Shown in pieces: positions 5,745 to 57,473 of a stretch of 64,000 bases of DNA. Under the pieces are notes generated by a model that saw only the letters and a list, made by a program, of their open reading frames with translations, did not search any database and had not been told where the DNA came from. Where the stretch lies: NCBI RefSeq assembly GCF_036250065.1, contig NZ_CP109199.1, positions 5,704,001-5,768,000 on the forward strand, in the 5' to 3' direction. This DNA is from Micromonospora sp. NBC_01699 (GTDB lineage Bacteria; Actinomycetota; Actinomycetes; Mycobacteriales; Micromonosporaceae). Numbering within the stretch: position 1 is the first letter of the stretch; every line of letters begins with the position of its first letter. The position numbers and the translations under genes were made by a program.

Positions 5745-5752
5745 AAAGGAGG
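5745..5752 (+). promoter_or_regulatory. Strong ribosome binding site fixing the start of the first NRPS gene
   Basis: AAAGGAGG ten bases upstream of the GTG at 5763. The frame stays open upstream to 5517, but the added residues are low-complexity, so this site decides the start. Confidence 0.8.
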
Positions 5753-5762
5753 AAAGCGGACC

Positions 5763-8700
5763 GTGCGGTCGACCAGCAGTAGCACAGCCGAGGTCGATGA
5801 CGACCAGCCGAACGCGGCCGAGCCGGACGGTGAGAGCTACGACCTACTGGCACTCCAGCAGGGTCTGCTGTTCCACAACCACTTCGAACCCGGCTCCGGC
5901 GTCGACATCCTCCAGGTCGTGGTCGACTGGCCGGAACCGCTCGACCCGGTCGCGATGACCGCCGCCTGGCAGGCCGCGACCCGGCGACACCCGGTCCTGC
6001 GGACCGCGTTCAGCTGGCTCGGCCAGGACCGGGCCACCCAGCGGGTGTACGCCGAGGTGACCATACCGGTCCACCGGTACGACTGGCGGACCGAGGGCCC
6101 CGGCGACCCGGCGGCCCGACAGGCCCGACTGGACGACTTCCTCGCCACCGACCGGTCCCGCGAGTTCGACCCGTCGACCGCTCCCCTGGTCCGGGTCGGG
6201 CTGATCCAGCACGCGGCCGACCGGCACACCATCGTGTTCAGCCTGCACCACGTGATCCTCGACGGGCGCTCGGTGCACCTGCTGCTCAGCGAGGTGTTCA
6301 ACGAGTACGCCGCGACCGTCGCGGGCCACTCGCACACGCCCCCGGCCCGCCGGTCGTTCCAGGAGTTCGCGGCCTGGGCCGGGCAGCACCCGCTCGCCGC
6401 CGACCAGCACTTCTGGCGTACCCGGCTGAGCGGGCTCACGTTGCCAACACCGCTGCCGCTGCGGCCGGCCGCCGACACGCCGCCGCGCGAGCCGGACTCC
6501 GTACGGGAACTCGCCCTCACCCTCGACGAGAGCGACAGCACGGCGCTGAACCGGACCGCGCGGGCCGTCGGCGTACCGCTGAGCACATTGGTCAACGCCG
6601 CCTGGGCGGTGCTGCTGCACCGCTACAGCGGTGAGCGGGACGTCGTCTTCGGCGCCGTCCGCAGTTGCCGCCGGGGCAGCATCGACGGCGCCGACACGAT
6701 CATCGGCATGTTGATCAATACCGTGCCGCTGCGGATCGACGTCCGTCCGCAGGCGACCGTGCGCGACTGGCTGGTCGAGGTACGGGCCCAGATCGACGCG
6801 GTCCGGGCGCACCAGGTCGCGCCGCTCACCGCCGTACAGGGCTGGAGCGAGCTGCCGCCGAGCGCACCGCTGTTCGAGAGCCTGCTCATGTACGAGCACC
6901 GCGAACTAGGGACCGCGCTACGCGGCTCGGTCCCGGACTGGAACGGGCGCAGCGCGCGGGTGCACCGGCACCCCGGCCCGCCGGTGACCGTCTGCGTCTT
7001 CGGTGAGCCGACGTTGCGGGTGCTGCTCTACCACGACCGGCGCCGGTGCACCGACGCCGCCGCCGACAGCATGCTGCGCCACTTCACCAACCTGCTGGTC
7101 GGACTCGCCACCGGGCTGGACGCGCCGGTGGCCGAACTGCCGCTGTTCGACCCGGCCGAACACCACCTGCTCACCCACGAGTGGGCCGGGCACGACCGGC
7201 CCGACGGCACCACCGGCGAGCCGACCTTCGACACCATCGGCGAACGCTTCGCCGAGCAGGTGCGGCGGCGGCCCGACACGGTGGCGGTGACCGGGGTGGA
7301 CGGCACGCTCAGCTACGCCGAACTCGACGCGCGGGCCAACCGGCTCGCCCACCTGCTGATCCGGCACGGGGTCGCCCCGGACCAGCCGGTGGCGGTCGTC
7401 CTGCCCCGGTCGGTGCGGCTGGTCTCCACCCTGCTGGCCGTGGTTCGGGCCGGTGCGGCGTACCTGCCGCTGGACCCGGCGAACCCGCCGGCCAGGACCG
7501 CCGACCTGCTGGCCGCCGCCGGTAACCCGGTGGTGCTGACCGCGAGCGGGTCCGACCCGACCGGCACCGGGATCGCCCCGCCGCTGCCGGACGGAACCCG
7601 GACGATCGACCTCGACCGGATCGGCGCCGAACTGGACGCACTGCCGACCACCGCGCCGCAGCGACCGACCCGGCCGGAGAGCCTGGCCTACGTCAACTAC
7701 ACCTCGGGCTCCACCGGGACCCCCAAGGGCGTCGGGGTGCCGCACCGGGCCGTACTCCGGCTGGTGCACGAACCCGGCTACCTGCGGCTCGGTCCCGACC
7801 AGACGGTCCTGCACCTCGCCTCGGCCGCCTTCGACGCGGCCACCCTCGAAATCTGGGGCAGCCTGCTCAACGGCGCCCGGCTGGTCGTCGCCCCACCCGA
7901 CCCGCTCGGACCGGCGGAGATCGCCCGGCTGCTGCGGGCCGAGCGGATCAGCGTGCTCTGGCTGACCGCCGGACTGTTCCACCAGGTCGTCGAGCAGGAC
8001 CCCGGCGCACTGGCCGGAGTGGACCAGCTCCTGGCCGGCGGCGACGTGCTCGACCCCGGCGCGGTCCGCGCCGCGCTGCGGGTCCGCGCCGGTCGACCCC
8101 TGATCAACGGGTACGGGCCGACCGAGAACACCACCTTCACCTGCTGCCACCGGATGACCGACCCGGCGGTCGTACCCGCGCCGGTGCCGATCGGCCGGCC
8201 GGTGCCCCGGAGCACCGTCTACGTACTGGACCGGCTGCTGCGGCCGGTGCCGGTCGGTGCGCCCGGTGAGCTGTACACCGGCGGCGACGGCCTGGCTCGG
8301 GGCTACCTGGGCGATCCCGGCCGGACCGCCGAGCGGTTCCTGCCCGACCCGTTCGACCACCGGCCCGGCGCCAGGATGTACCGCACCGGGGACCGGGTCC
8401 GCTGGCTGCCGGACGGGACGCTGGAGTTCCTCGGCCGGATCGACCGACAGGTCAAGATCAGAGGCTTCCGGGTCGAGCCGGCCGAGGCGGAGGCGGTCCT
8501 GCGGGCCCACCCGCTGGTCGGCGAGGTCGCCGTGGCCGTGCACGGCGAGGGCGAACGGCGCCGGCTGGTCGCCTACGTCAGCCCCGGCGCGATCGGCGCG
8601 GCAAGGCTGGACGAGCGGGAACTCGACGCGTACGCGGTCGCCCACCTGCCGGTTTACCTGCGCCCGGCCGGGTACGTGCTGCTGCCGAAGCTGCCGCTGA

Positions 8701-11700
8701 ACCGCAACGGCAAGGTGGACCGGGCCGCGCTGCCCGCCCCGACCTCGGCTGCCCGCCCGGCCCCGGAACGGCCGTTGACCGATCCCACCCAGATCCGGCT
8801 CGCCGCGCTCTGGGTCGAGCTGCTCGGCGCCGAGGTGGGCCGGGCCGAGGACGACTTCTTCGCCCTCGGCGGCAACTCGCTGCTCGCCACCCGGCTGGCC
8901 TTCCTCGCCGCCGAACGGTTCGGCGTCGAACTGCCGGTACGCACCGTCTACGACCAGCACGACCTGGCCGGGCTGGCGGCCGAGATCGACCGCCGACGCG
9001 CCACCCCCGAACCCGCGCCGGTACGGATCACCGCCCGCGACCGTGGCGCGTACCGCAGTGCCGTCGCCACCACCGGCCCGCAGCCGGCGCCCCCCGCCAA
9101 CGGCGCGTCGACCGCCGGCCCGGTCCCGGTGCCCGCCGCCGATCCGGTGCCCGCCGCCGATCCGGATCCCCCCGCCGATCCGGAGCCGTCGGCCGGTGTG
9201 GACCACCTGGTGCGGCCCGGTGCCGGACCGTGGGCGATGTGGCGCTGGGTCGGGCTGCGCGCCGCCGGCTTCCCGGTCGGGCCGCTCACCCGGCTCGGCG
9301 ACCCCGAACTCGTGCACAGCACCGATGCCGTGCTGGCCGGCGAGGAGCGGCTGACGGAGCTGCGCCGGGCGATGGCCGACAACCTGCACCGGGCCCGCCG
9401 GGCCGCCCCGACCGAGCAGCGGTCCCGGTGGAACCGGGCCGACCGGCAGGTCCGCCAGGGTACGGTGCCGGACGAACTGCCGGCGGTGGCCGATCCCGCG
9501 CTGGCCGCCCTGCTGGCCGAGAACCGGGCCGCGCTCGCCGACGCCGTCGAGCGGGTACGGGCCGACCGGCTGGCCTTCGTCCACTCCCACGAACGGGCCA
9601 GCGCCCGGCGTAGCGCCGCACTGCGCGCCGCCGCCGCCGACCCGCTCCTGCGCGAGGCGGTGACCTGGCAGAACCGGCAGGCGCTGCGGACCGGCCTCGA
9701 TCCGCTGCTGCACCGGGCCGGGCCGGCACAGGGCGAGCCACCGACGGCCCGCGACTCCAAGCACCGGCAGCACGAGGCGCTGGTCGCCACCTACCTCCAG
9801 CGGTACTGCGTCAAGAACGACACCATCGGCTTCTTCGGCCCGGTCGGCTGGGCCACCGTCGCCCCCGGCGGGACCGGGCTGCGGATCGAGCACGGCGCGA
9901 CCCGGCTGGCCGCCCGTACGGTCTACTTCGAGAACTGGGCCATGGCCGGGCTGGCCGACGCGCTCACCGCACGGGATCCCGGCCTGGCGCCGTGGCTGAT
10001 CCCGCGCCGGCTGCCGTTCCTCAGCGTGCTCGACGACCACCTGCTGCTGCCGCTCACCCCGCCGGCACCGCTGCCACCGGCAACGGCCCGGCTGCTCGCC
10101 GCCGCCGACGGGACGCGCACCGCGTACGAGATCGCGGTCGAGCTGGTGGCCGACCCGAGCAGCGGGCTCACCTCCCCGGAGGAGGTCTACCGGCTGCTGG
10201 CCGAGCTGCGCGACGCGCACCGGGTGACCTGGTCGCTGGAGGTGCCGAAGGAGGACCTGTTCCCGGAGCGGTCGGTCCGAAACCGGCTGAACGCGGTCAC
10301 CGACCCCGCCGTACGCGAACCGGCGCTGCACGCCCTGGACGACCTGGTCCGGGCCCGCGACGCGGTCGCCGCGGCGGCCGGCGACGCCGACCGGCTCGGT
10401 GCCGCGCTGGCCGACCTGGAGACGACGTTCACCGACCTCACCGGTGCCGCGCCGACCCGCCGGGCAGGCAGGGTGTACGCCGGCCGCACGCTGGTGTACG
10501 AGGACTGCCGGGCGAGCGACCGGGTGACCCTCTCCACCGACCTGGTCGGCACCCTCTGGCCGGCGCTGAGCCTGCTGTTGGAGAGCGCCCGCTGGTTCAC
10601 CTTTGCCGGCACCGCCCTGTTCGGCCGCGCCTGCCGGGAGCGGTACACCGAACTGGTCGGCCGCACCGGCAACGCGCAGACCACCGTGCCGTTCGCCGAC
10701 TTCTGGCTGTGGGCCAACGACCTGCTGTTCGACCTGCCGGAACGACTGATCGCCCCGGTGATCCGAGGGTTGCAGGACCGGTGGAGCCGGATCCTGCCGG
10801 ACCTCGACGGGCAGCGCCGGATCCAGCTCGACTCGGCCAGCATCGCCGACCGGGTGGCCGCCGCGTTCGCCGCACCCCGTCCCGGCTGGATCGGCGCGTA
10901 CCAGCACTCGCCGGACGTGATGCTGGTCGCCGACGGGACCGAGGCGATCGCCCGGGGCGACTTCCAGTGGGTGGTGGGCGAGGTCCACCCCGGCGTGAAC
11001 ACGCTGCGGGCGGCCCTGTTCATGGCCCAGCACCCGGAGCCGGAGGAGCTGGTCAGCGCGATGCGGGCGGACCTGCCCGGTCCCCGGGTGGTGCTGGCCG
11101 CGACCGGCGAGGAGGGCGGGGCACCGTCCCGGCTGACCGACAAGCTGATCGTCGAACGGGATCTGCGCCTGGTCTTCGGGCACGACAGCTGCGGTCTGGA
11201 CCCGCGAACCGCGGTGGCGGTGGCCGACTGCGTACTGGAGTCGCGCGACGGGACGCTGACCGTACGGACCCGGGACGGGAAGTTCGCGCTGCCGCTGACC
11301 GAGGTGGTCGGCGAGGCCCTGATGCTCCAGGTGATCCAGCGGTTCGACCTGCTCCCGCCGGCCGACCACCGGCCCCGGATCACCGTCGACAACGTGGTGA
11401 TCTCCCGGGAGAACTGGCGGTTCGGCGCGGCCGGACTGGACTTCGCCCGGACCGTCGACGAGGCGGAACGCTTCCGTGAGGTACGCCGCTGGCAGTGCGA
11501 ATCCGGCCTGCCCCGGTACGTCTTCGTGAAGACACCGGTGGAGAAGAAGCCGTTCTTCCTCGACTTCGCCAGCCTGGCGTCGGTCGACGGCTTCGCCCGC
11601 GCGGTGCGACGCACGGTCGAGGGCGCCGGCCCGGACGCGACCCTGCGACTGAGCGAGATGCTGCCCACCCCCGAGCAGCTCTGGCTGACCGACCCGGACG

Positions 11701-11786
11701 GTGGCCGGCGTACCGCCGAGTTCCGTCTGGTCGCGGTGGACACCCGCCGGCCGGACGCCGGAACCCGGACCGGGAGCGTGACATGA
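5763..11786 (+). CDS. NRPS (C-A-T) fused to a LanB-type lantibiotic dehydratase domain
   Basis: A protein of 2007 residues. The condensation domain spans about residues 25-460, with its catalytic motif HHVILDG at 162-168. The adenylation domain (about 490-1000) has [11 protein letters not shown] near 646, NGYGPTEN near 782 and NRNGKVDR near 980. The carrier domain has GGNS with the pantetheine serine at about 1039. A repeated Pro/Ala/Asp linker (about 1110-1145) follows. The last 860 residues match the LanB N-terminal (tRNA-dependent glutamylation) family: [47 protein letters not shown] (KNDT at about 1351), ending in [20 protein letters not shown] and [13 protein letters not shown]. No C-terminal elimination domain is visible. 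By GrsA alignment I read a specificity code DALWLGGTFK, which I cannot assign to an amino acid. It is first in the operon and overlaps a tiny frame leading into the next NRPS. Confidence 0.9.
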
Positions 11787-11829: not shown

Positions 11830-14800
11830 ATGACCGCTGAGACCTTCGTTCTGCCCGCCTCGTCGACCCAGCGTCGGCTGTGGATGCTGGACCAGCTGAA
11901 CCCCGACTCGGCGGCGTACAACATCGCCTGGTCGGTGCGGCTGACCGGCGAACTGCGGGTGGACGCGCTGGAGTTGGCGCTGAGCTGGCTGGTCGACCGG
12001 CACGAGGTGCTGCGTACGACCTTCACCTCGGTGGACGGCGAACCGGCACAGCTGGTCAGTCCGCCGTGGGCGGTACAGCTGCCGGTCACCGAGCCGGCCG
12101 GCGACCCCGCGGCCGAGGCGGTGCAGGTGCTGGCGGCGGAGAGCCGGGCGCCGTTCGACCTGAGCCGGGGACCGCTGCTGCGGGCCCGGCTGGTCCGGTC
12201 GGCGCCGGACGAACACCTGCTCGTCCTCGTGGTGCACCACATCATCGCCGACGGCTGGTCGTTCGAGACCGTCTTCCGGGAGCTGGCGCACGGCTACCGG
12301 GCCGCGCTCGCCGGAACGACGCCGGACCTGCCGCCGCCGCCGATCCAGTACGCCGACTTCGCGGTCTGGCAACGCGAACAGGCCGCCCGGGACGCCTTCG
12401 CCGACGACCTCGCCTTCTGGCACGACGAGTTGGACGGTGCGCCGACCCTGCTCGACCTGCCCGCCGACCGGCCCCGCCCGGCGGAGCAGTCATCGGCCGG
12501 CGACGTGGTCACGTTCGACCTGCCGGCGGCACTGACCACCGGCGTACGCGGACTCGCCCGGGACGCCGACACCACCGAGTTCGCCGTGCTGCTCGGCGGG
12601 TTCCAGGCACTGCTGCACCGGCTCAGCGGCCAGCAGGACCTGCTGGTCGCCGTACCGGTGGCGGGGCGGAGCCGGCCGGAGACCCGGGGTGTGGTCGGCT
12701 TCTTCGCCAACACGTTGGCGTTGCGGGGGAGGTTCGAGGAGCGGACCACCTTCACCGAGGTGCTGCGCGGGGCCCGGAGCAGCGCCATCGCCGCCCAGTC
12801 CCACCAGGACGTGCCGTTCGAGGAACTGGTCGACCTGCTCGCCCCGCGGCGCAGCCTGGCCTACTCGCCCGTGGTGCAGGTCATGTTCGCGCTGGAGGAG
12901 ACGCCGCCGCCGGTCGAGGTGGCGGGGCTGCGGATCGCCCCGGAACTGCACGAGAACGGCAGCGTCAAGTTCGACCTCACGCTCACCATCGAGCAGCGTC
13001 CGGACGGGTTCCGGGGGCGGTTGACGTACCGGACCGAGCTGTTCGACGCCGACCGGATCGAGCGGCTCGCGAGCGCGTACCTGGCGCTGCTGGCGGCGGG
13101 GGTGGCCCAGCCCGCTACCCGGATCGCCGAGCTGCCGCTGCTCGGCCCGGCCGCCCGCGACGAGATCGTCGCCGGTTGGCGGGCGCAGGAGTCGACCCCG
13201 CCGCCGTACGCCTCGGTCGCGGAACTGCTCGACCGGCACCCGTCGGTCGACCCGGACGCGGTGGCGGTGGCCTCGGCGGACGGCATGCTGACGTACGGGC
13301 AGCTCGCGGTCGACCGCAACCGCCTCGCCCACCTGCTCCGCGAGTACGGCGTCGACCTCGACGTACCGGTCGGGCTCTGCCTGTCCCGGGGCGCCTCGAT
13401 GCTGACCGCGATGCTCGCGGTCTGGCAGGCCGGCGGCGGTTACCTGCCGCTGGACCCGGAACTGCCGGTCGCCCGGCTGACCGCGATGGCCACCGGTGCC
13501 GGCACCCCGGTCGTGCTCACCGACCTGGCCAGCGCCGCCCGGACCGGTGACTGCTGGCCGACCGGAACCAGGGTGATCCACCTCGACGGGGCCGAGATCT
13601 TCGCGCGGCTGCGGACCCTGCCGGACACCGCGCCGGAGCTCGCCGGTCACCCGGACAGCCTCGCCTACCTGCTCTACACCTCCGGCTCGACCGGGGTGCC
13701 GAAGGGCGTGGCGGTCACCCACGGTTCGGTGGTCAACCTGCTGGTCGGCTTCGACGGGCTGCTCCGCCTCACCCCGGCCGACCGGGTCGCCGCGATCACC
13801 ACCATCGCCTTCGACATCTCCGTGGTCGAGCTGATCCTGCCGCTGCTCGCCGGTGCCCGGATCGAACTGCTCGACAGCGGGCTCGCCGTCGACGCCGCCG
13901 CGCTGCGGGCCGAACTGGCCGACCGGGCGGTCACCGTCGTGCAGGCCACCCCGGCGAGCTGGCGGATGCTGCTCGCCGCGGGCGGGGTGCCGGCCGGCGT
14001 ACGGCTGCGGGTCAGCGGCGGCGAGGCGCTCACCCGCGACCTCGCCGACGCGCTGCTGACCGACGGCGCCGTGCTGTTCAACGGCTACGGCCCGTCGGAG
14101 ACGAGCATCTACTCCACCGCCGGTCCGGTCGACGCGCACGGCCCGGTCGACCTCGGGGACCCGGTCGCCAACACCCGCCTCTACCTGCTCGACCCGGCCG
14201 GGCAGCCGGTGCCGGTGGGTGCGGTCGGCGAGCTGCACCTCGGCGGCCCCGGAGTGGCCCGCGGCTACCACGGCAGTGCCGCGCGCACCGCCGCGAGCTT
14301 CCGCCCCGACCCGTGGGGCGCCCGGCCCGGTGCCCGCCTCTACGCCACCGGTGACCTGGCCCGCTGGCTACCCAACGGCCGGCTGGAATACCTCGGCCGG
14401 GCCGACCAGCAGGTCAAACTCCGGGGCTACCGAATCGAGCTCGGCGAGATCGAGGCCGCGCTGCGGGCCCAGGACGAGATCCGGGACGCGGTCGTGGTCA
14501 CCTGGCAGGCCAGCGCCGAGGACGTCCGGCTGGTCGGGTACGTGGTGCCGACCGAGCCCGAGGCCGATCCGGCGGCGCTCTGGTCCCGGCTGCGCCCCGC
14601 GCTCGCCGGTCAACTGCCGGAGTACATGCTGCCGGCGACGCTGGTGCCGATGGACCGGTTCCCGCGTACCGGCAGCGGCAAGATCAACCGGCGGGCGCTG
14701 CCGGAGCCGGTGTGGCGGGAAACCGTCGGCGCCGGGTCGGTCGCCCCGCGTACCCAGACCGAGGAGGGCCTGGCGCTGCTCTGGCGCGAGGTGCTCGGGC

Positions 14801-15117
14801 TGGCCGAGGTCGGCGTACACGACAACTTCTTCGCCCTCGGCGGCCACTCGCTCACCGCCACCCGACTGATCGCCCGGATCCGCGCCACCTTCGGCGTCGA
14901 CCTACCGCTGCGCCTGCTCTTCGCCGCACCGACCATCGCCGAACTCGCGCCCCTGGTCGCCGACCCGGCCACCGCCGGACCCCACCCCAACGGTACGGCC
15001 GACCGGGTCGCCACCGGGGGACCGAGCGCCCAGGACCTGCTCGCATCGCTCGACGACCTCTCCGACCGGGAGATCGACGAGCTGTTGGACACCCTGATCG
15101 CCGAGGAGGGCTCATGA
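11830..15117 (+). CDS. NRPS module (C-A-T)
   Basis: Single-module nonribosomal peptide synthetase of 1095 residues. The condensation domain carries HHIIADG (from H136). The adenylation domain has YTSGSTGVPKG near 616 and FNGYGPSET. The carrier domain has GGHS with the pantetheine serine near 1007. My manual specificity code is DIVQVGGIYK, related in its first half to glycine-type codes but not assignable. A short helical acidic tail (LDDLSDREIDELLDTL) at the C-terminus resembles a docking segment. The ATG at 11830 overlaps the stop of a 15-codon frame, and its own stop overlaps the start of the flavoenzyme gene by ATGA. Confidence 0.93.
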   Translation: MTAETFVLPASSTQRRLWMLDQLNPDSAAYNIAWSVRLTGELRVDALELALSWLVDRHEVLRTTFTSVDGEPAQLVSPPWAVQLPVTEPAGDPAAEAVQVLAAESRAPFDLSRGPLLRARLVRSAPDEHLLVLVVHHIIADGWSFETVFRELAHGYRAALAGTTPDLPPPPIQYADFAVWQREQAARDAFADDLAFWHDELDGAPTLLDLPADRPRPAEQSSAGDVVTFDLPAALTTGVRGLARDADTTEFAVLLGGFQALLHRLSGQQDLLVAVPVAGRSRPETRGVVGFFANTLALRGRFEERTTFTEVLRGARSSAIAAQSHQDVPFEELVDLLAPRRSLAYSPVVQVMFALEETPPPVEVAGLRIAPELHENGSVKFDLTLTIEQRPDGFRGRLTYRTELFDADRIERLASAYLALLAAGVAQPATRIAELPLLGPAARDEIVAGWRAQESTPPPYASVAELLDRHPSVDPDAVAVASADGMLTYGQLAVDRNRLAHLLREYGVDLDVPVGLCLSRGASMLTAMLAVWQAGGGYLPLDPELPVARLTAMATGAGTPVVLTDLASAARTGDCWPTGTRVIHLDGAEIFARLRTLPDTAPELAGHPDSLAYLLYTSGSTGVPKGVAVTHGSVVNLLVGFDGLLRLTPADRVAAITTIAFDISVVELILPLLAGARIELLDSGLAVDAAALRAELADRAVTVVQATPASWRMLLAAGGVPAGVRLRVSGGEALTRDLADALLTDGAVLFNGYGPSETSIYSTAGPVDAHGPVDLGDPVANTRLYLLDPAGQPVPVGAVGELHLGGPGVARGYHGSAARTAASFRPDPWGARPGARLYATGDLARWLPNGRLEYLGRADQQVKLRGYRIELGEIEAALRAQDEIRDAVVVTWQASAEDVRLVGYVVPTEPEADPAALWSRLRPALAGQLPEYMLPATLVPMDRFPRTGSGKINRRALPEPVWRETVGAGSVAPRTQTEEGLALLWREVLGLAEVGVHDNFFALGGHSLTATRLIARIRATFGVDLPLRLLFAAPTIAELAPLVADPATAGPHPNGTADRVATGGPSAQDLLASLDDLSDREIDELLDTLIAEEGS

Positions 15118-16496
15118 CGGCCACGCCGTCCCCGACCGAACGCCGGGACCGTGCCGTGATCATCGGTGCCGGCCTGGCCGGCTCACTCGCCGCCGTCTAC
15201 CTGGCCCGCCGAGGCTTCGAGGTGGACGTCTACGAACGGCGCGACGACCCCCGGCTGGCCCCGGCCGGCGCCGCCGGACGCTCGATCAACCTGGGCCTGT
15301 CCGCCCGTGGCATGCGGGCGTTGCAGGAGGTGGGCCTGCTCGCCGACGTACTCAAACGAAGTGTGCCGATGCGCGGCCGGGTGGTCCACGCCCCCGACGG
15401 CACCGTCGGCTTCCAGCCGTACGGGGTGCACGGCCACCAGATCCTGCACTCGGTGCTGCGCGACGAGCTGATCGCCGTACTCGTCGACGCGGCCGAGGCA
15501 CAGCCCGGCGTGCGGTTCCACTTCGGCTGGCGGCTGCACGGCCTCTACCGGGAGGTGCCCAGCGTCGCCGTGACCCGGCTGACCGACGGCACCACCGAGG
15601 AGGTGAGCGCCGACCTGGTCGTCGGCGCCGACGGCGCGTTCTCCACCGTACGCCAGCACCTGCACCACGGGCAGCGGGCCAACCACGCCCAGGAGTTCCT
15701 GGACTGGGGCTACAAGGAGCTGACCATCCCGGTCGGCGACGACGGCCAGCCCCGGGTACGCCTGGAGGCGCTGCACGTCTGGCCCGGCGAGAACGGCCTG
15801 ATGGTCGCCCACCCCAACGTGGACGGCTCGCTGACCTGCACCCTGTTCCTGCCGTTCGAGGGCCCGCACAGCTTCGCCACGCTCACCACCCCGGACGCGG
15901 TCCGCGCCTTCTTCCGGGCCAACTTCCCCGACGCCGAGGAGCTGATGCCCCGGCTGGTCGAGGAGGTGCTCGACCACCCGACCGGCCAGATGGTGACCGT
16001 CCGGACCAGCCCGTGGCGGCACACCGACCGGGTGGTGCTGGTCGGTGACGCGGCCCACGCCGTCTACCCGTTCTACGGGCAGGGCATGAACGCCTCCTTC
16101 GAGGACTGCCTGGTGCTGGACGAGTGCCTGGACCGGCACGCCGACCGGGGCGAGGCGCTGGCCGCGTACGAGGCGGCCCGTCGACCGCACACCGACGTGC
16201 TGGCCGACCTGTCCACCCGCAACTTCGTGGAGCTGCGCGACCGGGTGCACCGCCCGGCGTACGCGCTGCGGGCCGGCGCCGACCGGCTGCTCAGCCGCCT
16301 GCTGCCGGACCACTGGACGCCGCTCTACACGATGGTCGCGCACACCACCACCCCGTACGCCGAGGCACTGGCCCGGTCCGGCCGGCAGGACCGGCTGCTG
16401 CGTGCCGCCGCGACCGGCGGCGCGCTGGCGCTCGGCACCGCGCTGGCGTACGCGGCGAACCGCTCGGTACGCGCCCGACGTGGCTCGGGGCGGTGA
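15114..16496 (+). CDS. Kynurenine 3-monooxygenase-like FAD-dependent hydroxylase
   Basis: About 460 residues of a group A flavoprotein aromatic hydroxylase. The FAD-binding motif is VIIGAGLAGSLAAVYLARRG near the N-terminus. GRSINLGLSARGMRAL and DWGYKELTIP are typical of kynurenine 3-monooxygenases, and GDAAHAVYPFYGQGMN (about residue 311) is the second flavin motif. A hydrophobic stretch near the C-terminus (GGALALGTALAYAANRSV) recalls the membrane-associated tail of KMO. The ATG overlaps the preceding NRPS stop by four bases, so it is part of the pathway. The substrate could be free kynurenine, another aromatic amino acid or a carrier-bound residue. No kynureninase or tryptophan dioxygenase gene is in the window. 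Confidence 0.85.
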   Translation: MTATPSPTERRDRAVIIGAGLAGSLAAVYLARRGFEVDVYERRDDPRLAPAGAAGRSINLGLSARGMRALQEVGLLADVLKRSVPMRGRVVHAPDGTVGFQPYGVHGHQILHSVLRDELIAVLVDAAEAQPGVRFHFGWRLHGLYREVPSVAVTRLTDGTTEEVSADLVVGADGAFSTVRQHLHHGQRANHAQEFLDWGYKELTIPVGDDGQPRVRLEALHVWPGENGLMVAHPNVDGSLTCTLFLPFEGPHSFATLTTPDAVRAFFRANFPDAEELMPRLVEEVLDHPTGQMVTVRTSPWRHTDRVVLVGDAAHAVYPFYGQGMNASFEDCLVLDECLDRHADRGEALAAYEAARRPHTDVLADLSTRNFVELRDRVHRPAYALRAGADRLLSRLLPDHWTPLYTMVAHTTTPYAEALARSGRQDRLLRAAATGGALALGTALAYAANRSVRARRGSGR

Positions 16497-16503
16497 CCCG
16501 GCC

Positions 16504-17253
16504 GTGCTCATCCACCCCGAACAACCGGACTGCGTGCTGGTGGAACAGTTCGACCTGACCGCCGAGGCGGTGCACCCGCTGCTGGACGGCGTCGAGGAGA
16601 AGCTGCTCAGCGTGCTCCGCTGGGGCCGCGAGTATCTCTGCCGGCCGCACCCGGACCTGGGGCGCAAGGGACCGGTCTGCCCGTTCGCCCAGGCGTCCCT
16701 GGACCGGGGCATGTTCTACCTGGCCGTGCACCGGGGCGAGACGGTGGAACCGGACGCGCTCGACCGGCTGCTGATGACCTACCGCGACTGGTTCCGCCAA
16801 CTGCCGCCGACCACCGGTCCGGCCGCCCAGTTCAAGACCATCCTGCTCACCCTGCCGGACGTGCCGTCGGAAGAGGCGAACGCCGCCGTCGACGCCACCC
16901 AGGGACGACTGAAACCACAGTACGTCTCGGAGGGGCTGATGATCGGCGAGTTCCACAGCGGCCCACCGGACAAGGGCGGGCTGTGGAACCTCGACTTCCG
17001 GCCGCTGTACAGCCCGGTGCCGCTGCTCGCGATCCGGCACATGGTCCCGTCGGACTTCCCGTTCCTGGCCGACGACCCCGGCTCGGTCGCCACCTACCTG
17101 CGCCTGTTCGGCGCCAACACGCCGTCGGCCCTGCGCGGCCGGGTCACCGCCGCCGCGAACCAGTTCGGCCTGTCCGTGCCGCACCCGGCACCGGTGCCCC
17201 CACGCGCGCCAGTGCCCCAACTGGCCGAACAGCAAGGAGCAGCAGCGTCATGA
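16504..17253 (+). CDS. DUF6875-like conserved protein of the NRPS cluster
   Basis: About 249 residues with no assigned activity. The segment GRKGPVCPFAQASLDRGMFY and later LMIGEFHSGPP, RHMVPSDFPFL suggest the DUF6875 family from memory; the motif GPVCPF is its hallmark. The C-terminal 30 residues are Pro/Ala-rich. I place the start at GTG 16504, eight bases after the flavoenzyme stop and behind GGGGCGG; a GTG at 16480 inside the previous gene is the alternative. Its position between a KMO-like enzyme and NRPS genes suggests a tailoring or precursor role, but this is inference. Confidence 0.7.
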   Translation: MLIHPEQPDCVLVEQFDLTAEAVHPLLDGVEEKLLSVLRWGREYLCRPHPDLGRKGPVCPFAQASLDRGMFYLAVHRGETVEPDALDRLLMTYRDWFRQLPPTTGPAAQFKTILLTLPDVPSEEANAAVDATQGRLKPQYVSEGLMIGEFHSGPPDKGGLWNLDFRPLYSPVPLLAIRHMVPSDFPFLADDPGSVATYLRLFGANTPSALRGRVTAAANQFGLSVPHPAPVPPRAPVPQLAEQQGAAAS

Positions 17254-17320: not shown

Positions 17321-20640
<3,320 letters not shown>

Positions 20641-20644
<4 letters not shown>

Positions 20645-23600
20645 CCGAGGTCGACTCCGCCGCCCGGGAGCGGCTGATCCGGGAACTGCTCGCCCGGCGG
20701 GGGGTTGTTTCCGCCCGCCGGCCGAACACGATCCCGCCCCGGTCGCCCGGTGCCCGGATCCCGCTCTCCCCGCTCCAGGAGGGACTCTGGTTCCTCGACC
20801 GGCTCGACCCCGGCAGCGGCGCGTACACGATGGCCGTCGCGGCCCGGATCACCGGCCCGCTGGACGCCGCCGCGCTGCGCCGCTCGGTCGACGCCGTCCA
20901 GGACCGGCACGAGGCGCTGCGTACGGTCTTCGAACTCCGGGACGGCCGGACCGAGCAGGTGGTGCTGCCGCCCGGTGACCCGCGGATCCGGATCCCGATC
21001 GAGGTCAACGACGTGTCCGCCGAGCCCGGTGACCGGGAGGCGCTGGCTGACGCCCTCGCCCGGCGGTGTATCGACCTGGGCTTCGACCTGGAACGCGGGC
21101 CGCTGGTCCGGGTCCAGTCGACCCGGATCGAGCCGGACGGACACCTCGTCGTGCTGAGCCTGCACCACATAGTCGCGGACGAGCGGTCGTTGTCGATCGT
21201 CTTCGGCGAGGTGGTGGACGGGCTGCTCGACGGCCCGGCCGCGGATCCGCCGCCGGTGCAGTACCCGGACTACGTACTCTGGCGGCAGCAGGCGCTCGAC
21301 GCCGGGGAGACGCGGCGGCAGCGCGAGTTCTGGGCCGGGCAGCTCGCCGGTGCCTCGGGCGCGCTGGAGCTGCCCACCGACCGGCCGCGTCCGGCGGTGC
21401 AGACGTTCGCCGGGGCGACCCACCCGTTCGAGCTGCCGGCGGAGCTGACCGCCGCGCTCGACGGGCTGGCCCGGCGTACCGGTTCCACCCGGTTCATGCT
21501 GCTGCTGACCGCGCTCCAGGTGCTGTTGCAGCGGTGGACCGGCGAGGACGACATCTGTGTCGGTTCACCCGTCACGACCCGGTCCAACCCGGACCTGGAG
21601 TCCGTGGTCGGGCTGATGGTAAACAGCCTGGCGCTGCGTACGGACCTGTCCGGCGACCCGACCCTGGCGGTCGCCGCGCAACGGGTACGGCGTACCTGCG
21701 TCGACTCGCTCGACCACGCCGACCTGCCGCTGCACCAGGTGGTCGAGCTGGCCGAACTGCCCCGCGACCCGAGCCGGAACCCGCTGTTCCAGGTGATGTG
21801 CGTGGTCAACCCGCCGGTCGAGGAGCGGGAGTCGTCGGCGCTCACGGTTCGGCCGCTGGTCTTCGGCCGGGACACCGCGCGGATGGACCTCACCGTCCTG
21901 TTCTACGAGACCTCACCGAGCATGTCCGGGTTGGTCGACTACAACACCGACCTGTTCGACGCCGCGACCGTCCGCCGGTTCACCGACCGGCTTCAGCTCG
22001 TCCTCCGAGCGCTGACCGGCGACCCGGACCGCCGGCTGTCCGAGCTGGACCTGCTCGGCCCGGACGACCGGCGGGACCTGGCCGGGTGGAACGACACCGG
22101 GGACGAGCCGTCCGGTGCCTGCCTGGCCGAGCTGATCCGGGCGCGGGCCCTGATCGCCCCGGACGCGCCGGCGGTGGTCGACGGCGAGCACGTGCTGAGC
22201 TACGGCGAGTTGAATCGGCGGGCCGGGCGGCTGGCCCGCCGGCTGCGCCGGGCCGGGGTGGGGCCGGAGGTCCCGGTCGGTCTGGTCCTGCCCGCCGGTA
22301 CGGCGGCGGTCGTCGGCATCCTCGGCATCCTCCGGGCCGGCGGGGCGTACCTGCCGCTGGATCCGGGGCACCCGCCGGCCCGGCTGCTGGCCCTGCTCGC
22401 CGACGCGGGCGCACCGGTGGTCCTGGTCGATCCGGCCGACGCGCCGCGCTTCGCCGACCACCCCGGCACCGTGCTGTCCATCGACGACACCGACGTCACC
22501 GACTCCGACGTCACCGACTCCGACGACGGCCCGCTGCCGGTGACCCGGCCGGACCAGCTCGCGTACGTCATCTACACCTCCGGCTCCACCGGTACGCCGA
22601 AGGGTGTGATGGTCACCCACCGGACGGCGGTCAACCTGACCCGCGCCTTCGTGGACCTGCACGGCATCGGCCCCGACGACCGGCTGCTGATGCTGCCGCC
22701 GTTGAGCTTCGACGCCTCGGTCGGCGACCTGTTCCCGGCCCTGGTCGCCGGTGCCGCCCTGGTGGTGCACCGGCGACCGGCCGAACTCACCGGGCCGGAT
22801 CTGCTCACGTTCTGCGCCGAGCAGGGGATCACGCTGGTGGACACCGCCGCCGCGCTCTGGGTCCGCTGGGTGGCGGACCTGGCCGACGCGGCACCGCGTA
22901 CGGACACCGGGTTGCGGGCGCTGATGATCGGCGGCGAGGCGGCCCCGACCGGGGCGGTACGCGGCTGGGCGGACGCCACCGGCGGCACGGTACGGATCTA
23001 CAACCACTACGGTCCGACCGAGGCGACCGTCTGCGCCACCACGTACGCCACCGTGGACGCCGGTGAGCTGCCCGGACTCGGCCAGTTGCCGATCGGGCGC
23101 CCGGTTGCCGGGGTCCGGGTGCACCTGCTCGACGCCCGGCTGCGCCCGGTGCCGGTCGGCTTCACCGGCGAGGTCTACGTCGGCGGCACCGCCCCGGCCC
23201 GGGGTTACCTGGGTGCGCCGGGGTTGACCGCGCAACGGTTCGTGGCCGACCCGTACGGGCCGCAGGGTTCGCGGCTGTACCGGACCGGGGACCTGGCCCG
23301 GCACCGGTCGGACGGGACGCTGGAGTTCCTCGGCCGCACCGACCGGCAGGTGAAGATCCGGGGGCACCGGATCGACCTGGGCGAGGTGGAGGTCGCCTGC
23401 GCGGCGCAACCGGGGGTGGCGCGGGCGGCGGTGACGGTCCGCGACGACGGGACCGGGCCGCGCCTGGTCGCGTACCTGGTGGCGGCCGTCGAGGCGGCGC
23501 CGACGCCGGCCGTGGTCCGGGCCGGGCTGCGTGAGCGGCTGCCGGACTACCTGGTGCCCGCGCACGTGGTGCTGCTGCCCGAGTTGCCGCTGAACTCGCA

Positions 23601-25116
23601 CGGCAAACTCGATTTGGCGGCCCTGCCGGCGCCGGCCGACCGGCCGGCCGACGCCGACCACGTACCGCCCCGGACGCCGACCGAACGGGCGCTCGCCGGC
23701 ATCTGGGCCGGGCTGCTCGACTCCGACCGGGTCGGTGCCCGGGACAACTTCTTCGACCTCGGTGGACACTCGCTGCTCGCCGGCCCGCTGGCCGCCCGGA
23801 TCACCGCCGAACTCGGTGTCGACGTGCCGCTGCGGGCCCTGTTCGAGACCGCCGACCTGGCCGGTCTGGCCGAGCGGATCGACCGGGCCCGCGCCGGGCA
23901 CGCCGGGGGCAGGCTCGACCCCGATCGGGTACGCGACGACGCCCGACTGCCGGACGACGTCGCCGCCGGGCTGCCGGCGGAACAACCGGCGGCGGTACCG
24001 GAGACGGTGCTGGTCACCGGGGCCACCGGCTTCCTCGGCGCGCACCTGCTCGCCGACTGGCTCGCCCACAGCCGGGCCGAACTGCACTGCCTGGTCCGGG
24101 CCGGCACCCCGCAGGCCGCCTTCGACCGGGTACGCGACAACCTGCTCCGCTACGGCCTCTGGCGCGACGAGTACGCGGGCCGCCTGGTCGGCGTACCGGG
24201 TGATCTCGGTGAGCCGGGGCTCGGGCTGGACCGGCGGGACTTCGACGCGCTGGCCGACCGGACCGATCTGGTGCTGCACAACGGTGGGCTGGTCAACTTC
24301 CTGATGCCGTACGACCGGCTGCGGCCGGCGAACGTCAACGGCACCCTGGAGGTGCTGCGGCTGGCCACAGCCGGGCGCCCGACCGCCGTACAGGTCGTCT
24401 CCACCCTCGGGGTGTTCCTCACCCCGGACCGGGTCGGCGGCACCGTACTCGAAACCGACAACCCGGACGACCCGACCGGGCTCGGCGACGGCTACAACGC
24501 CACCAAGTGGGCGGCGGACGCGCTGGTCCGGGCGGCACGGGCGCGCGGGCTGACGGTGGGTGTGCACCGGCCGGCGCGGATCACCGGCCACGCCGGCACC
24601 GGGGTCGGCAACGCCGACGACTACTTCAGCCGACTGTTGAAGACGTTCGTGCAGCTCGGCGCGGTGCCGGAGATCCCGGACGACCACGCCGACCTGGCCC
24701 CGGTCGACTACGTGGGCCGGGCGATCGGGCACCTGTCCCGACAACCGGGGCACCGCAACGACGACTTCCACTACTACAACAACCACACGATCTCCTTCGC
24801 CGACCTGACCGGTGCGCTGCACGGTTTCGGCTACCCGGTCGAGCCGGTGCCGTACGACCGTTGGCGGGCCGCCCTGCTGGCCCGGCCGGACGTGGCACTG
24901 GCACCGTTCACCCCTCTGTTCGGCGAGCAGGCGCCCCGGCGTACCCAGCCGTTTTTCGACTGTGCCCGGACCGAGGCGGCGCTGGCACCGGCCGGCATCA
25001 CCTGCCCGCCCGCGGACCCGGCGCTGCTGCACACCTACCTGGCCTGGTACGTCCGCACCGGGTTCCTCGACCCGCCGCAGGCCGGCACAACCGATCTCGG
25101 GAGTACGCATGGCTGA
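20641..25116 (+). CDS. Terminal NRPS module with thioester reductase (C-A-T-TD)
   Basis: Final synthetase of 1491 residues. The condensation domain motif is HHIVADE (from H175), where the last position is Glu instead of Gly. The adenylation domain has [11 protein letters not shown] near 645 and YNHYGPTEATVCATT; my manual code is DAGDMGHVCK, which I cannot assign. The carrier serine is in GGHS near 1044. The C-terminal 370 residues form an NAD(P)-dependent thioester reductase: VTGATGFLGAHLLADWL near 1125 and the YxxxK motif in YNATKW (Y at about 1285). Release is therefore expected to be reductive, giving an aldehyde or alcohol. The GTG start overlaps the upstream stop by four bases, and the stop overlaps the transporter start by eight bases. 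Confidence 0.93.
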
Positions 25117-26461
25117 ACGGATCCGCGCCCGGCTGCTGATAGCGGTCTGGGTCGGTCAGCTCGTCTCCCTGATCGGGTCCAGCCTGACCGGGTTCGTGCT
25201 CGGCGTCTGGGTCTACCAGCGGACCGGCTCGGTCACCCAGTTCTCGCTGATCTTCCTGGCCAGCAGCCTGCCGGCGGTGCTGGCCGCCCCGTTCGCCGGG
25301 GTGATCGCGGACCGCTGGGACCGACGCAGGGTGATGCTGGTCAGCGACCTCGGCGCGGCGATCGGCACCGCCGCGCTCGCCCTGCTGGTGGCGAACGACA
25401 GCCTTGAGGTCTGGCACATCTACCTGGCCACCGCGCTCAGCGCCGCCGCCTCGACCGTGCACCAGGTCAGCTACCAGGCGATGACACCGGCGCTGGTCGG
25501 CAAGGCGCACCTGGCCCGGTTCAACGGGCTGATGCAGGTCACCCGGGCCGCCCAGATCGCCGCCCCGCTGGTCGCCGGGGTGCTGGTGGTGACGATCGGG
25601 ATCGAGGGGGTGCTCGCGGTCGACCTGGGCAGCTTCGCGGTGGCGTCGCTGACCCTGCTGCTGGTCCGGTTGCCCGCCGAGGCGACCCGGCCGGCGGCCG
25701 AACGGACCCGTGAGCCGGTGCTGCGGGACGCCGCCGCCGGCTGGCACTACCTGCGGGCGCACACCGGGCTGTGGCAGCTGATGGTGCTCTTCGGCGCGTA
25801 CAACTTCCTGTTCGGTTTCGCGGGTGTGCTGGTCCAGCCGCTGATCCTGTCGTTCGCCTCGGCGGACACCCTCGGCGTGCTGATGTTCGCCGGTGGCGCG
25901 GGACTCTTCGCCGGCAGCCTGGTGATGACCGCCTGGGGTGGCCCGGCCCGGAAGATCCACGCCGTCTTCGGTGGGCTGGCGCTCGGCGGGGTGGCGCTGG
26001 TACTGCACTCGCTGAGCCCGTCGGCGTGGCTGATCGCCGTGGTGGCGCCGCTGTTCCTGTTCACCCTGCCGATCGTGAACAGCTCCACCATGACCCTGAT
26101 CCAGACCAAGACCGAGCCGAAGGTGCTCGGCCGGGTGCTGGCCGCCGCCCGGGTGGTCGGCGACGCCAGCATCCCGGTGTCGTACCTGCTCGCCGGTCCG
26201 CTCGCGGACCAGGTCTTCGAGCCGCTGTTGCGCCCCGACGGCGCGCTGGCCGGCAACGTCGGCACGGTCGTCGGCACCGGCGACGGCCGGGGAACGGCCC
26301 TCGTCTTCGCGGTTGTCGGCACGCTCATGGTGCTGCTGGTGGCGTTCGCCTGGTCCCGCCGCTCGCTGCGGGACGTGGACGACCTGCCCGACGCCCTGGA
26401 GCCGGCCGAGCCGACGCCCCCCGCCACGGCTGACCCGGCCGCCGAGCCGGTACGCGGCTGA
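25109..26461 (+). CDS. MFS transporter of the NRPS cluster
   Basis: About 450 residues of an integral membrane protein of the MFS drug/siderophore exporter type. It has roughly twelve hydrophobic segments and the inter-helix motif GVIADRWDRRRVMLVSD. It starts inside the 3' end of the reductase-containing NRPS (eight-base overlap), so it is co-translated with the assembly line. Export of or self-resistance to the peptide product is the likely role. A Pro/Glu/Ala-rich cytoplasmic tail ends the protein. Confidence 0.9.
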   Translation: MAERIRARLLIAVWVGQLVSLIGSSLTGFVLGVWVYQRTGSVTQFSLIFLASSLPAVLAAPFAGVIADRWDRRRVMLVSDLGAAIGTAALALLVANDSLEVWHIYLATALSAAASTVHQVSYQAMTPALVGKAHLARFNGLMQVTRAAQIAAPLVAGVLVVTIGIEGVLAVDLGSFAVASLTLLLVRLPAEATRPAAERTREPVLRDAAAGWHYLRAHTGLWQLMVLFGAYNFLFGFAGVLVQPLILSFASADTLGVLMFAGGAGLFAGSLVMTAWGGPARKIHAVFGGLALGGVALVLHSLSPSAWLIAVVAPLFLFTLPIVNSSTMTLIQTKTEPKVLGRVLAAARVVGDASIPVSYLLAGPLADQVFEPLLRPDGALAGNVGTVVGTGDGRGTALVFAVVGTLMVLLVAFAWSRRSLRDVDDLPDALEPAEPTPPATADPAAEPVRG

Positions 26462-26516: not shown

Positions 26517-27569
26517 ATGCCGGTGCCGTTGCCGCCCGAGGTCGTCCGCGCGTTCATGGAGACGGACGAGGCCCCCTCGGCCCACCTCGACATGCTGAAC
26601 GCGATCTCGTTCCGGACCGTCGGAGCGGGTCTGCGGCTCGGCGTGTTCGAGGAACTGGCCGATGGCCCCCTACCGGTCGCGTCGCTGGCCGAGCGGGTCG
26701 GCGCCGACCCGCTCGGGCTGCGCCTGCTGCTCGACGCGCTGGTCGGCTTCGGCTACCTCGTCCAGCCCGGCGGCGCATACGCCAACAGCGAGAACACCGC
26801 CCGTTGGCTGCTGCGCTCCACCCCGGACAGTTTCGCCCCGGTGCTGTCGTTCTGGACCACCGTGCTCTCCGAACTCTGGGGCGACCTGGAGACCTCGGTG
26901 CGCCAGGGCGGGCCGACCGGTGACTTCTACGCCTGGCTGGAGCGACGCCCGGAGACCCTGGCCGACTTCCAGACCATGCTGCGCCGGCTCGCCGGCTGGC
27001 TCGCCGAGGAGGTCATCACCCTGGTCCCGGCCCCGCCCGCCGGGGGCCGGCTGCTGGACCTCGGTGGCGGGCACGCCGGTTACACGGCGGCGTTCTGCCA
27101 GGCGTACCCGGAGCTGACCGGCACGGTGGTCGACCTGCCCGGCGCCCTGTCCCAGGGCCGGGCCGTGGTCGACGGTGCCGGCTTGGCCGACCGGGTCGAG
27201 CTGCGCCCCGGCGACCTGCTCACCGCCGACCTCGGCACCGGCTACGACCTGGTCCTGCTTTTCAACATCGTGCACGGGTACGACGACCGCCAGGTGGCCG
27301 CACTGCTCGACCGGGTCGCCGCCGCGCTCAACCCCGGTGGCCGGGTAGTGCTGCTGGAGCCGCTCGCCGAGGTCCCCGAGCGCGAACCGGGCGTCGCCGA
27401 CGCGTTCGTACGCGCCTTCAGCCTCAACCTGTTCCACACCCAGGGCGGCAGGGCGTACGCCTTCGACGAGCTGGCGAAGCTGCTCACCGCGGCCGGTTTC
27501 GGCGAGCCGGAGGAGCGGATGCTGACCCGCTCCGACGCCGACCACCTGGTCATCGCCACCCGCGCCTGA
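26517..27569 (+). CDS. SAM-dependent O-methyltransferase of the NRPS cluster
   Basis: 350 residues of the acetylserotonin/plant-type O-methyltransferase family. The N-terminal winged-helix dimerisation domain includes LADGPLPVASLAERVGADP. The SAM-binding motif LLDLGGGHAGYTAAF lies near residue 179, followed by LLFNIVHGYDD and LNPGGRVVLLEPL. AAGGAGAAG lies just upstream of the ATG at 26517. It follows the transporter by 55 bases on the same strand. With the flavin hydroxylase encoded upstream, it plausibly methylates a newly introduced phenol. Confidence 0.9.
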   Translation: MPVPLPPEVVRAFMETDEAPSAHLDMLNAISFRTVGAGLRLGVFEELADGPLPVASLAERVGADPLGLRLLLDALVGFGYLVQPGGAYANSENTARWLLRSTPDSFAPVLSFWTTVLSELWGDLETSVRQGGPTGDFYAWLERRPETLADFQTMLRRLAGWLAEEVITLVPAPPAGGRLLDLGGGHAGYTAAFCQAYPELTGTVVDLPGALSQGRAVVDGAGLADRVELRPGDLLTADLGTGYDLVLLFNIVHGYDDRQVAALLDRVAAALNPGGRVVLLEPLAEVPEREPGVADAFVRAFSLNLFHTQGGRAYAFDELAKLLTAAGFGEPEERMLTRSDADHLVIATRA

Positions 27570-46032: not shown

Positions 46033-46250
46033 CCCGACCGCCGGGGTCGAACCGTTCGTCGTGTCCACCCGACCCGACCGCCGGGGTCGAACCGTTCGTC
46101 GTGTCCACCCGACCCGGCCACCGGGGTCGAACCGTTCGTCGTGTCCACCCGACCCGGCCACCGCGGGTTGAGCCGTCGGCGCGTTCCGCCTGACCCGACC
46201 GCTGCCACCGACCCGGCCGCCGAGGGTCGCGTTGTCGGCGTATTCGCCGT
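46031..46250. repeat. 40-base tandem repeats downstream of the oxidase gene
   Basis: Units begin with CCGGGGTCGA at 46041, 46081 and 46121, an exact 40-base period. The first three copies are nearly identical, and at least one or two degenerate copies follow (46161-46250). Each unit includes GTTCGTCGTGTCCACC and an inverted pair CGACC/GGTCG across the unit junction that can form a GC hairpin. The array starts immediately after the stop codon. Confidence 0.9.
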
Positions 46251-57318: not shown

Positions 57319-57400
57319 GCCCTGCCCCTGCCCCTGCCCCTGCCCCTGCCCCTGCCCCTGCCCCTGCCCCTGCCCCTGCCCCTGCCCCTGCCCCTGCCCC
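57319..57400. repeat. Hexanucleotide repeat (CCCCTG)n
   Basis: About thirteen uninterrupted copies of CCCCTG on the plus strand (GGGGCA runs on the minus strand). The minus strand could form a G-quadruplex. It lies between the terC leader and an inverted repeat; frames through it are noise. Confidence 0.95.
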
Positions 57401-57402
57401 GT

Positions 57403-57473
57403 CGATCTTGCACTTGTGGCTGTTGACGTATGCGAACAAGCTGCCTAATCCGGGCGCCACAACTGCAAGATCG
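57403..57473. repeat. 18-base inverted repeat with 35-base loop
   Basis: The arm CGATCTTGCACTTGTGGC (57403-57420) is matched by GCCACAACTGCAAGATCG (57456-57473) with one mismatch. The loop contains TTGACGTATGCGAACAAG. From memory, near-identical hairpins recur in Micromonospora genomes, which would make it a REP/MITE-like dispersed element; this is not verified. It could also act as a bidirectional terminator. Confidence 0.85.

What the first reader, a model, noticed from the sequence alone, without database searches (positions are those of the whole stretch)
5763..11786. NRPS module covalently fused to a LanB (lantibiotic dehydratase) domain
A complete C-A-T module continues in frame, through a repetitive Pro/Ala/Asp linker, into about 860 residues with LanB-family motifs such as [13 protein letters not shown]. 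LanB enzymes normally act on ribosomally made peptides using glutamyl-tRNA. Direct fusion to a carrier protein suggests a LanB-type reaction on a thioester-bound nonribosomal intermediate, joining two biosynthetic logics in one polypeptide. I do not know of a characterised example.
Basis: partly seen in the sequence, partly recalled or inferred. Interest (0 to 1): 0.92.

Follow-up and report, generated by a model that had tools for sequence, protein, structure and literature searches.

The report
Peptide-making enzyme fused to tRNA-dependent ligase
A bacterial enzyme that builds small peptides without the ribosome carries, in the same protein, a second enzyme that probably adds one more amino acid taken from a transfer RNA; the second enzyme looks like a ligase and not like the dehydratase that its name suggests.

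Summary
The fusion is real: one intact 2007-residue gene (GTG 5763, behind AAAGGAGG) encodes C-A-T, a variable linker and a LanB-fold domain. Ten genomes of the family, the window's included, carry it in the same eight-gene cluster; Saccharothrix, Actinophytocola, Salinispora and Micromonospora contigs carry it too. The domain is not dehydratase-like: no elimination domain, and the positions matched by motif to ATP-dependent PEARL ligases (D1718, E1740-x-H1742, E1986-x-R1988) are kept in 75 of 75 genes aligned (35 fused, 40 stand-alone); the glutamylation-type LanB of the same genome has F, Q, Y, E, A there. A stand-alone PEARL-like NRPS partner (SnaE) is characterised and T-domain fusions were mentioned in the same paper, so the kind is known. 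New here: a starter condensation clade that goes with the LanB domain, and three relatives with A-T-C(urea)-A-T-LanB in one chain (EHHF[V/I]HDG), SnaA plus SnaE logic in one protein. Most likely the domain uses aminoacyl-tRNA and ATP to extend a free carboxylate of the T1-bound intermediate before module 2. What C1 attaches, and which amino acid is added, are unknown.

The parts
5763..11786 (+). NRPS-LanB fusion gene, 2007 aa (C-A-T-linker-LanB)
5745..5752 (+). ribosome-binding site AAAGGAGG
   Evidence: read; AAGGAGG before the homologous start in G001, G002, G037
5835..7172 (+). C1 condensation domain, motif LHHVILDG, member of the LanB-associated C1 clade
7248..8714 (+). A1 adenylation domain, code DALWLGGTFK (position scheme recalled; Val-like by recall)
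8796..8984 (+). T1 carrier domain, GGNSLLA intact
9000..9230 (+). low-complexity Pro/Ala/Asp linker, length-variable between species
9231..11783 (+). LanB-fold, PEARL-like domain (R1166, Y1344, R1347, D1718, E1740, H1742, E1986, R1988)
11830..15117 (+). NRPS module 2, C-A-T; its C domain belongs to the clade of C domains that follow LanB-carrying modules
15114..16496 (+). FAD-dependent monooxygenase (FAD_binding_3)
16480..17253 (+). DUF6875 protein (start approximate); the family includes heme-binding Trp oxidases per passages of PMC13307353
17321..20644 (+). NRPS module 3, C-A-T
20641..25116 (+). NRPS module 4, C-A-T-thioester reductase (C motif HHIVADE instead of DG)
25109..26461 (+). MFS transporter
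26517..27569 (+). O-methyltransferase

Best explanation
The C-terminal domain is a PEARL-type ligase working in cis on the first carrier. C1-A1-T1 makes an N-capped aminoacyl thioester (A1 probably loads Val) that exposes a free carboxylate. The LanB domain phosphorylates this carboxylate with ATP and joins it to the amine of an aminoacyl-tRNA; hydrolysis of the tRNA ester leaves a chain that is one residue longer at the 'wrong' end. C2 then takes the T1-bound intermediate, modules 3 and 4 extend it in the normal direction, and the terminal reductase releases an aldehyde or alcohol. Shown: the domain order, the predicted fold, presence of the matched active-site positions, absence of an elimination domain, conservation. 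Inferred: PEARL chemistry (by analogy with SnaE and BhaBC), action on the T1-bound intermediate, and that C1 leaves a carboxylate. Unknown: the C1 donor and the tRNA used.
For: PF04738 without PF14028 in the protein; in the ten genomes no PF14028 match lies within 600 kb of the fusion (against the places). D1718, E1740, H1742, E1986, R1988 and R1347 are kept in 76 of 76 rows = 75 genes, 35 fused and 40 stand-alone (L014 and L015 are one gene). The same-genome glutamylation-type LanB L009, best PDB match TbtB, has F, Q, Y, E, A at D/E/H/E/R. The positions match by motif and approximate spacing the BhaBC(Trp) residues D558, E575, H577, E813, R815, Y205, R208. Predicted fold of TbtB/GodF/NisB. 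Three relatives of the fused domain sit in A-T-C-A-T-LanB chains with the published C(urea) signature EHHxxHDG, the arrangement of SnaA plus SnaE, and their LanB domains nest inside the fused clade. C domains of the gene after the LanB-carrying one form one clade for both types, support 0.987, which fits action before C2. The A code of the LanB-carrying module is D[ALT][LW]W[LV]GGTFK in both types wherever coded, except L105. Closest pair G000/G002, dN/dS: LanB 0.18, A 0.19, linker 0.50.
Against: The window's C1 motif is LHHVILDG, not EHHxxHDG, so urea formation, and hence a source of a free carboxylate, is not shown. No BhaBC or SnaE sequence was in hand: residue matching rests on motifs and spacing, and one spacing (D558 to E575, 17 against 22) differs. 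E1986 and Y1344-xx-R1347 are also present in L009 and do not discriminate. SnaE itself may act on or off the carrier (PMC11212132). A C1-type domain also occurs without LanB in the 20 kb seen (L125). L105 has another A code (DAWFLGATMK). In more distant pairs LanB dN/dS rises to 0.27-0.58 and is not always below that of the linker. The tRNA and the product are unknown.
Confidence: 0.5

Rival explanations
1. PEARL-type ligase, but acting off the carrier: the domain is fused only for co-expression or co-localisation and extends the released product or a small acid.
For: The SnaE paper leaves on- versus off-carrier action open. Stand-alone relatives exist, one nested inside the fused clade in this very genome.
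Against: In the fused loci read at length the domain follows the T of the first condensing module and another C-A-T gene comes next, so it is not at the releasing end; the clade of following C domains suggests that C2 sees the LanB-modified chain.
Confidence: 0.25
2. LanB glutamylation: Glu-tRNA esterifies a T-bound Ser/Thr for dehydration.
For: Same family and fold as TbtB and NisB.
Against: No PF14028 domain in the protein or near the cluster; ATP-site positions that the glutamylation-type LanB L009 lacks are invariant; A1 code does not look like Ser/Thr (recalled codes).
Confidence: 0.07
3. C1 takes an acyl-aminoacyl-tRNA made by the LanB domain as its donor, so that chain initiation itself is tRNA-dependent.
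For: The C1 clade travels with LanB; no starter ligase or loading module is encoded in the eight-gene operon.
Against: No precedent known to me; in SnaA-type relatives the urea domain gives a simpler explanation.
Confidence: 0.1
4. The domain is a non-catalytic relic or docking module.
For: Nothing specific; possible in principle for any fused domain.
Against: 35 of 35 fused copies keep the matched residues; dN/dS about that of the A domain in the closest pair.
Confidence: 0.05

Closest known systems
SnaE with SnaA (threopeptin, Stackebrandtia nassauensis; PMC11212132)
   Same: LanB-annotated, PEARL-like protein in an NRPS cluster, without RiPP precursor or elimination domain per that paper; amide bond formation to a free carboxylate; relatives L106-L108 repeat A-T-C(urea)-A-T plus LanB in one chain.
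   Different: SnaE is stand-alone; the window has C1-A-T-LanB with a C domain lacking the urea signature, a terminal reductase instead of a PKS, and FMO/DUF6875/O-MT tailoring. I had no SnaE sequence to compare.
PEARLs BhaBC(Trp), TglB, AmmB (RiPP-type; PMC11962472, PMC12945691)
   Same: LanB-type homology; tRNA- and ATP-site positions matched by motif.
   Different: They act on ribosomal scaffold peptides; the gaps inside this operon leave no room for a scaffold gene, and the domain is fused to a carrier protein.
TbtB / GodF / NisB / MibB / MadB glutamylation domains
   Same: Fold; Y-x-x-R and R1166 positions, shared with L009.
   Different: No PF14028 partner; D/E/H/R ATP-site positions present here and absent in the same-genome representative L009.
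SylC-type ureido NRPS (syringolin; single-module layout recalled, urea signature from PMC11212132)
   Same: Possible single C-A-T module that makes a chain-reversed unit.
   Different: Published C(urea) signature EHHxxHDG is not met by C1.

Membership tests
PEARL (peptide aminoacyl-tRNA ligase) | Homology to the LanB glutamylation domain (PF04738) | tested here: met
   (95.5 bits, cut-off 28); fold
PEARL (peptide aminoacyl-tRNA ligase) | No elimination domain PF14028 in the protein or neighbourhood | tested here: met
   the one PF14028 match of G000 is at 4554336, the cluster starts at 5709763
PEARL (peptide aminoacyl-tRNA ligase) | ATP-grasp-like residues D558, E575, H577, E813, R815 (BhaBC(Trp) numbering) | tested here: met
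   by motif and spacing only; no direct alignment to BhaBC(Trp) was possible, and one spacing differs (17 against 22)
PEARL (peptide aminoacyl-tRNA ligase) | CCA-binding Tyr205-x-x-Arg208 | tested here: met
   Y 75 of 76 rows, R 76 of 76; also present in L009, so not discriminating
PEARL (peptide aminoacyl-tRNA ligase) | Ribosomal scaffold peptide gene | tested here: inconclusive
   gaps inside the operon are 43, 67 and 55 bases or overlaps (coordinates); the 787 bases upstream hold several mechanical ORFs, not examined further
PEARL (peptide aminoacyl-tRNA ligase) | ATP- and aa-tRNA-dependent amide formation | not testable with these tools
   needs biochemistry
NRPS C(urea)-PEARL system (SnaA/SnaE type) | C domain signature EHHxxHDG | tested here: not met
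   window C1 is LHHVILDG; met in relatives L106, L107, L108
Class I lantibiotic dehydratase | Elimination domain PF14028 | tested here: not met

The most novel reading that the evidence does not exclude
The C1 clade is an undescribed class of condensation domain that makes a carboxylate-exposing (chain-reversed) unit without the known urea signature, dedicated to a PEARL domain in the same chain, so that one carrier protein holds a peptide that grows in both directions: from tRNA at one end, from NRPS modules at the other.
Probability: 0.3. Interest if true: 0.8.

Novelty: new variant of a known kind. Interest (0 to 1): 0.6.

Why it matters
About two thousand NRPS/PKS clusters are said to hold 'lantibiotic dehydratases' (PMC11212132), but among the papers found here only one case has been worked out, and there it is open whether the ligase works on the carrier or on the released product. 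A covalent C-A-T-LanB protein makes this directly testable by intact-protein mass spectrometry, and the two interchangeable heads (C1, or A-T-C(urea)) in front of a conserved A-T-LanB core give natural parts for bidirectional peptide assembly. Full-length Pfam scans did not report the LanB domain in 3 of 4 fused relatives, so such fusions may be under-counted.

Tried and rejected
Lantibiotic dehydratase reading: rejected for lack of PF14028 and because of the residue pattern. Assembly or frameshift artefact: rejected. Sequence search of the PDB with the domain or a 9-row profile found nothing; only the structure search linked it to solved LanB folds. C1 as a urea domain: signature not met. A DNA pattern for the urea signature in 300 genomes: 124 of 300 have it, against 19 for the reversed control pattern by my count; sites were not checked for lying in C domains. 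I compared by eye the listed sites with the LanB places (both lists cut): sites inside LanB genes only in G003, G285 and G182, already known; one G297 site lies about 29 kb from its stand-alone LanB and was not examined; no SnaE-like pair was recognised. No tRNA gene in the window. Product not identified; A-domain codes use the GrsA position scheme and code meanings recalled from memory.

Bias and limits: the C and LanB trees use loci chosen because they hold LanB relatives or C1-type domains. The genome searches score only a few candidates per genome (3, 2), so their counts are lower bounds. In the C1 search (300 genomes, 39 with a hit at E<=1e-60) the cut between 'C1-type' and ordinary C domains was set after looking: of the best 16 hits (253 bits and more; ten are the window-type clusters) 14 are fused to LanB, 1 runs off a contig end (L126), 1 has no LanB in 20 kb (L125); the next hit, at 250 bits (G074), and all weaker ones were not examined in this respect. 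'Stand-alone' means no T-like stretch in frame in the locus held; 20 of the 41 stand-alone rows have more than 60 further residues in frame upstream. L009 was left out of the row counts and shown apart; six rows shorter than 731 aa were dropped.

Full report
OBSERVATION. The open frame 5763-11786 encodes 2007 residues. Pfam orders it as Condensation, AMP-binding, AMP-binding_C, PP-binding, Lant_dehydr_N (PF04738, E=3e-27). The linker is low-complexity, with an 18-base repeat, and differs in length from species to species between conserved flanks.

SURROUNDINGS. The gene opens a tight operon: C-A-T (11830-15117), FAD monooxygenase (15114-16496), DUF6875 (about 16480-17253), C-A-T (17321-20644), C-A-T-thioester reductase (20641-25116; TIGR01746 at 284 bits, cut-off 213), MFS (25109-26461), O-methyltransferase (26517-27569). 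Upstream lie rapZ, cofD and whiA, downstream GNATs, MFS, MarR, then uvrC and uvrA. There is no tRNA gene in the window. [quoted passage not shown] part 1 of 3 and passages seen).

CONSERVATION. In 300 genomes of the family, 128 have a relative of the LanB domain at E<=0.001. Ten, the window's own included, carry the near full-length fusion; the other nine are 63-93% identical in the LanB part. All eight genes are present in the same order in 10 of 10 (tblastn; the simple gene caller had missed some). A scan of GTDB contigs gave 14 named loci: Micromonospora echinofusca, Salinispora pacifica, ten Saccharothrix, Actinophytocola gossypii and a Ktedonobacteraceae MAG. Twelve of the 14 read the fusion in one frame; L099 (S. 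luteola) shows a frame change between A1 and T1 and in the MAG, L101, the LanB is a separate gene. In 11 of 11 Saccharothrix/Actinophytocola loci the order LanB, C2, FMO, DUF6875, C3 is kept. An MbtH gene precedes the fusion in L095 and L127 by Pfam and by eye in L098, L100, L105, L114, L115, L120 and L128; none was noticed in the window operon. FMO and DUF6875 gave no match in the stretches held of L105, L114, L115, L120 and L106-L108. In the order search 57 of 397 genomes have a relative at E<=1e-40, in a phylum sample 2 of 396 at E<=1e-60, the window's own included.

WHAT THE DOMAIN IS. A model from 61 sequences has mean pLDDT 93.6 and matches TbtB best (Foldseek E=1.1e-24, TM 0.65/0.70), then GodF, MibB, MadB and NisB. 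Published work on PEARLs names residues for ATP (D558, E575, H577, E813, R815 in BhaBC(Trp)) and for the tRNA CCA end (Y205, R208) (PMC11962472, abstract and three sections; PMC12945691, passages and one section; both rest largely on AlphaFold3 models with mutants). By motif and approximate spacing these correspond to D1718, E1740, H1742, E1986, R1988, Y1344, R1347. All but Y1344 (75 of 76) are kept in 76 of 76 rows; R1166 is kept in 69 of 69 rows without a gap there. The 76 rows are 75 genes, since L014 and L015 are two offsets of one: 35 fused, 40 stand-alone. L009, the LanB of the same genome that lies beside PF14028 and is closest to TbtB in the PDB, has F, Q, Y, E, A at the five ATP positions. 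This separates the fused domain from that glutamylation domain. I had no BhaBC or SnaE sequence, so the mapping is indirect.

CLOSE RELATIVES. Hits first taken for stand-alone proved to be further fusions: C1-A-T-LanB in L105, L114, L115, L120 and, later, L127 and L128; A-T-C-A-T-LanB in L106, L107 and L108, whose C domains read EHHF[VI]HDG, the published signature of urea-forming C domains (PMC11212132). Among 80 C domains from 30 loci or clusters in the tree only these three carry it. In that tree the C domains at the head of C-A-T-LanB proteins form one clade (support 0.965) together with C domains of L101 and L109, where a LanB is a neighbouring separate gene, and with L125 and L126, which show no LanB; C domains of the gene after the LanB-carrying one form another clade (0.987). 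In the LanB tree the fused domains fall in one clade (0.998) that also holds stand-alone copies, among them the second LanB of the window's genome, and the domains from the urea-type chains nest inside it. Weak inner supports (0.24 inside the fused clade, 0.12 for its nearest neighbours) mean that a single fusion event is likely but not proven. C1 search in 300 genomes: of the 16 best hits 14 are fused to LanB (cut chosen afterwards).

SELECTION. Rough pairwise dN/dS against five relatives: LanB 0.18, 0.27, 0.32, 0.52, 0.58; A 0.19, 0.28, 0.28, 0.51, 0.39; linker 0.50, 0.26, 0.74, 0.74, 0.54 (few codons). The LanB part is about as constrained as the A domain in the closer pairs; the linker is poorly alignable.

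MECHANISM. Yu and van der Donk reported in 2024, from gene inactivations in a heterologous host, that SnaE, annotated as a lantibiotic dehydratase, is needed to add Thr at the free carboxylate left by urea formation in SnaA; [quoted passage not shown] The fused proteins fit the same chemistry placed directly after T1. In the urea-type relatives the source of the carboxylate is clear if the signature holds; in the window it is not, because C1 lacks the signature and the operon encodes no loading module or acyl ligase. Among the upstream genes that I scanned, L114 has an AMP-ligase gene, and L115 a gene of like size and place. I therefore give the PEARL assignment about 0.8 and the complete on-carrier scheme 0.5.

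NOVELTY. The family, the chemistry and the existence of T-domain fusions are in print. Searches listed no paper that by title or abstract start describes a characterised fused example; I opened four papers only, and the open library lacks most subscription journals. New here, as far as these searches go, are the defined C1-A-T-LanB architecture with its own condensation clade, its conserved eight-gene cluster, and single-chain A-T-C(urea)-A-T-LanB proteins. I call it a new variant of a known kind.

Noticed in passing
G000:C1:2203204-2205381 (L003/L007): A stand-alone LanB-like gene of the same genome, 51% identical to the fused domain and nested in the fused clade; no match to the window's NRPS domains among the genes called in 32 kb around it, though the simple caller missed the LanB gene itself there.
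   Followed up: partly
L056:7910-10441 and L057:5008-7455: In G297 and G291 a second, stand-alone LanB gene follows the O-methyltransferase of the same cluster, so two tRNA-dependent additions are possible.
   Followed up: partly
L107:168-3555: Genes before the A-T-C(urea)-A-T-LanB protein encode transketolase-type, semialdehyde dehydrogenase and amino-acid kinase proteins, which recall (from memory) carrier-protein azabicycle amino acid pathways.
   Followed up: no
window 20758-22080: The C4 domain has HHxxxDE or HHxxxDD in place of HHxxxDG in 10 of 10 genomes; C3 has DA in 9 of 10.
   Followed up: no
L009:4897-12537: A glutamylation-type LanB with PF14028, a nitroreductase-family gene and an ABC transporter in the same genome.
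   Followed up: partly
L116, L122, L123: Two LanB-like genes lie close together near NRPS-like genes; closely spaced pairs of LanB matches recur in several genomes of genus g4.
   Followed up: no
window 46031-46202 and 57320-57616: A 40-base tandem repeat (4.3 copies), a perfect CCCTGC repeat (13.5 copies) and a G-rich tract.
   Followed up: no
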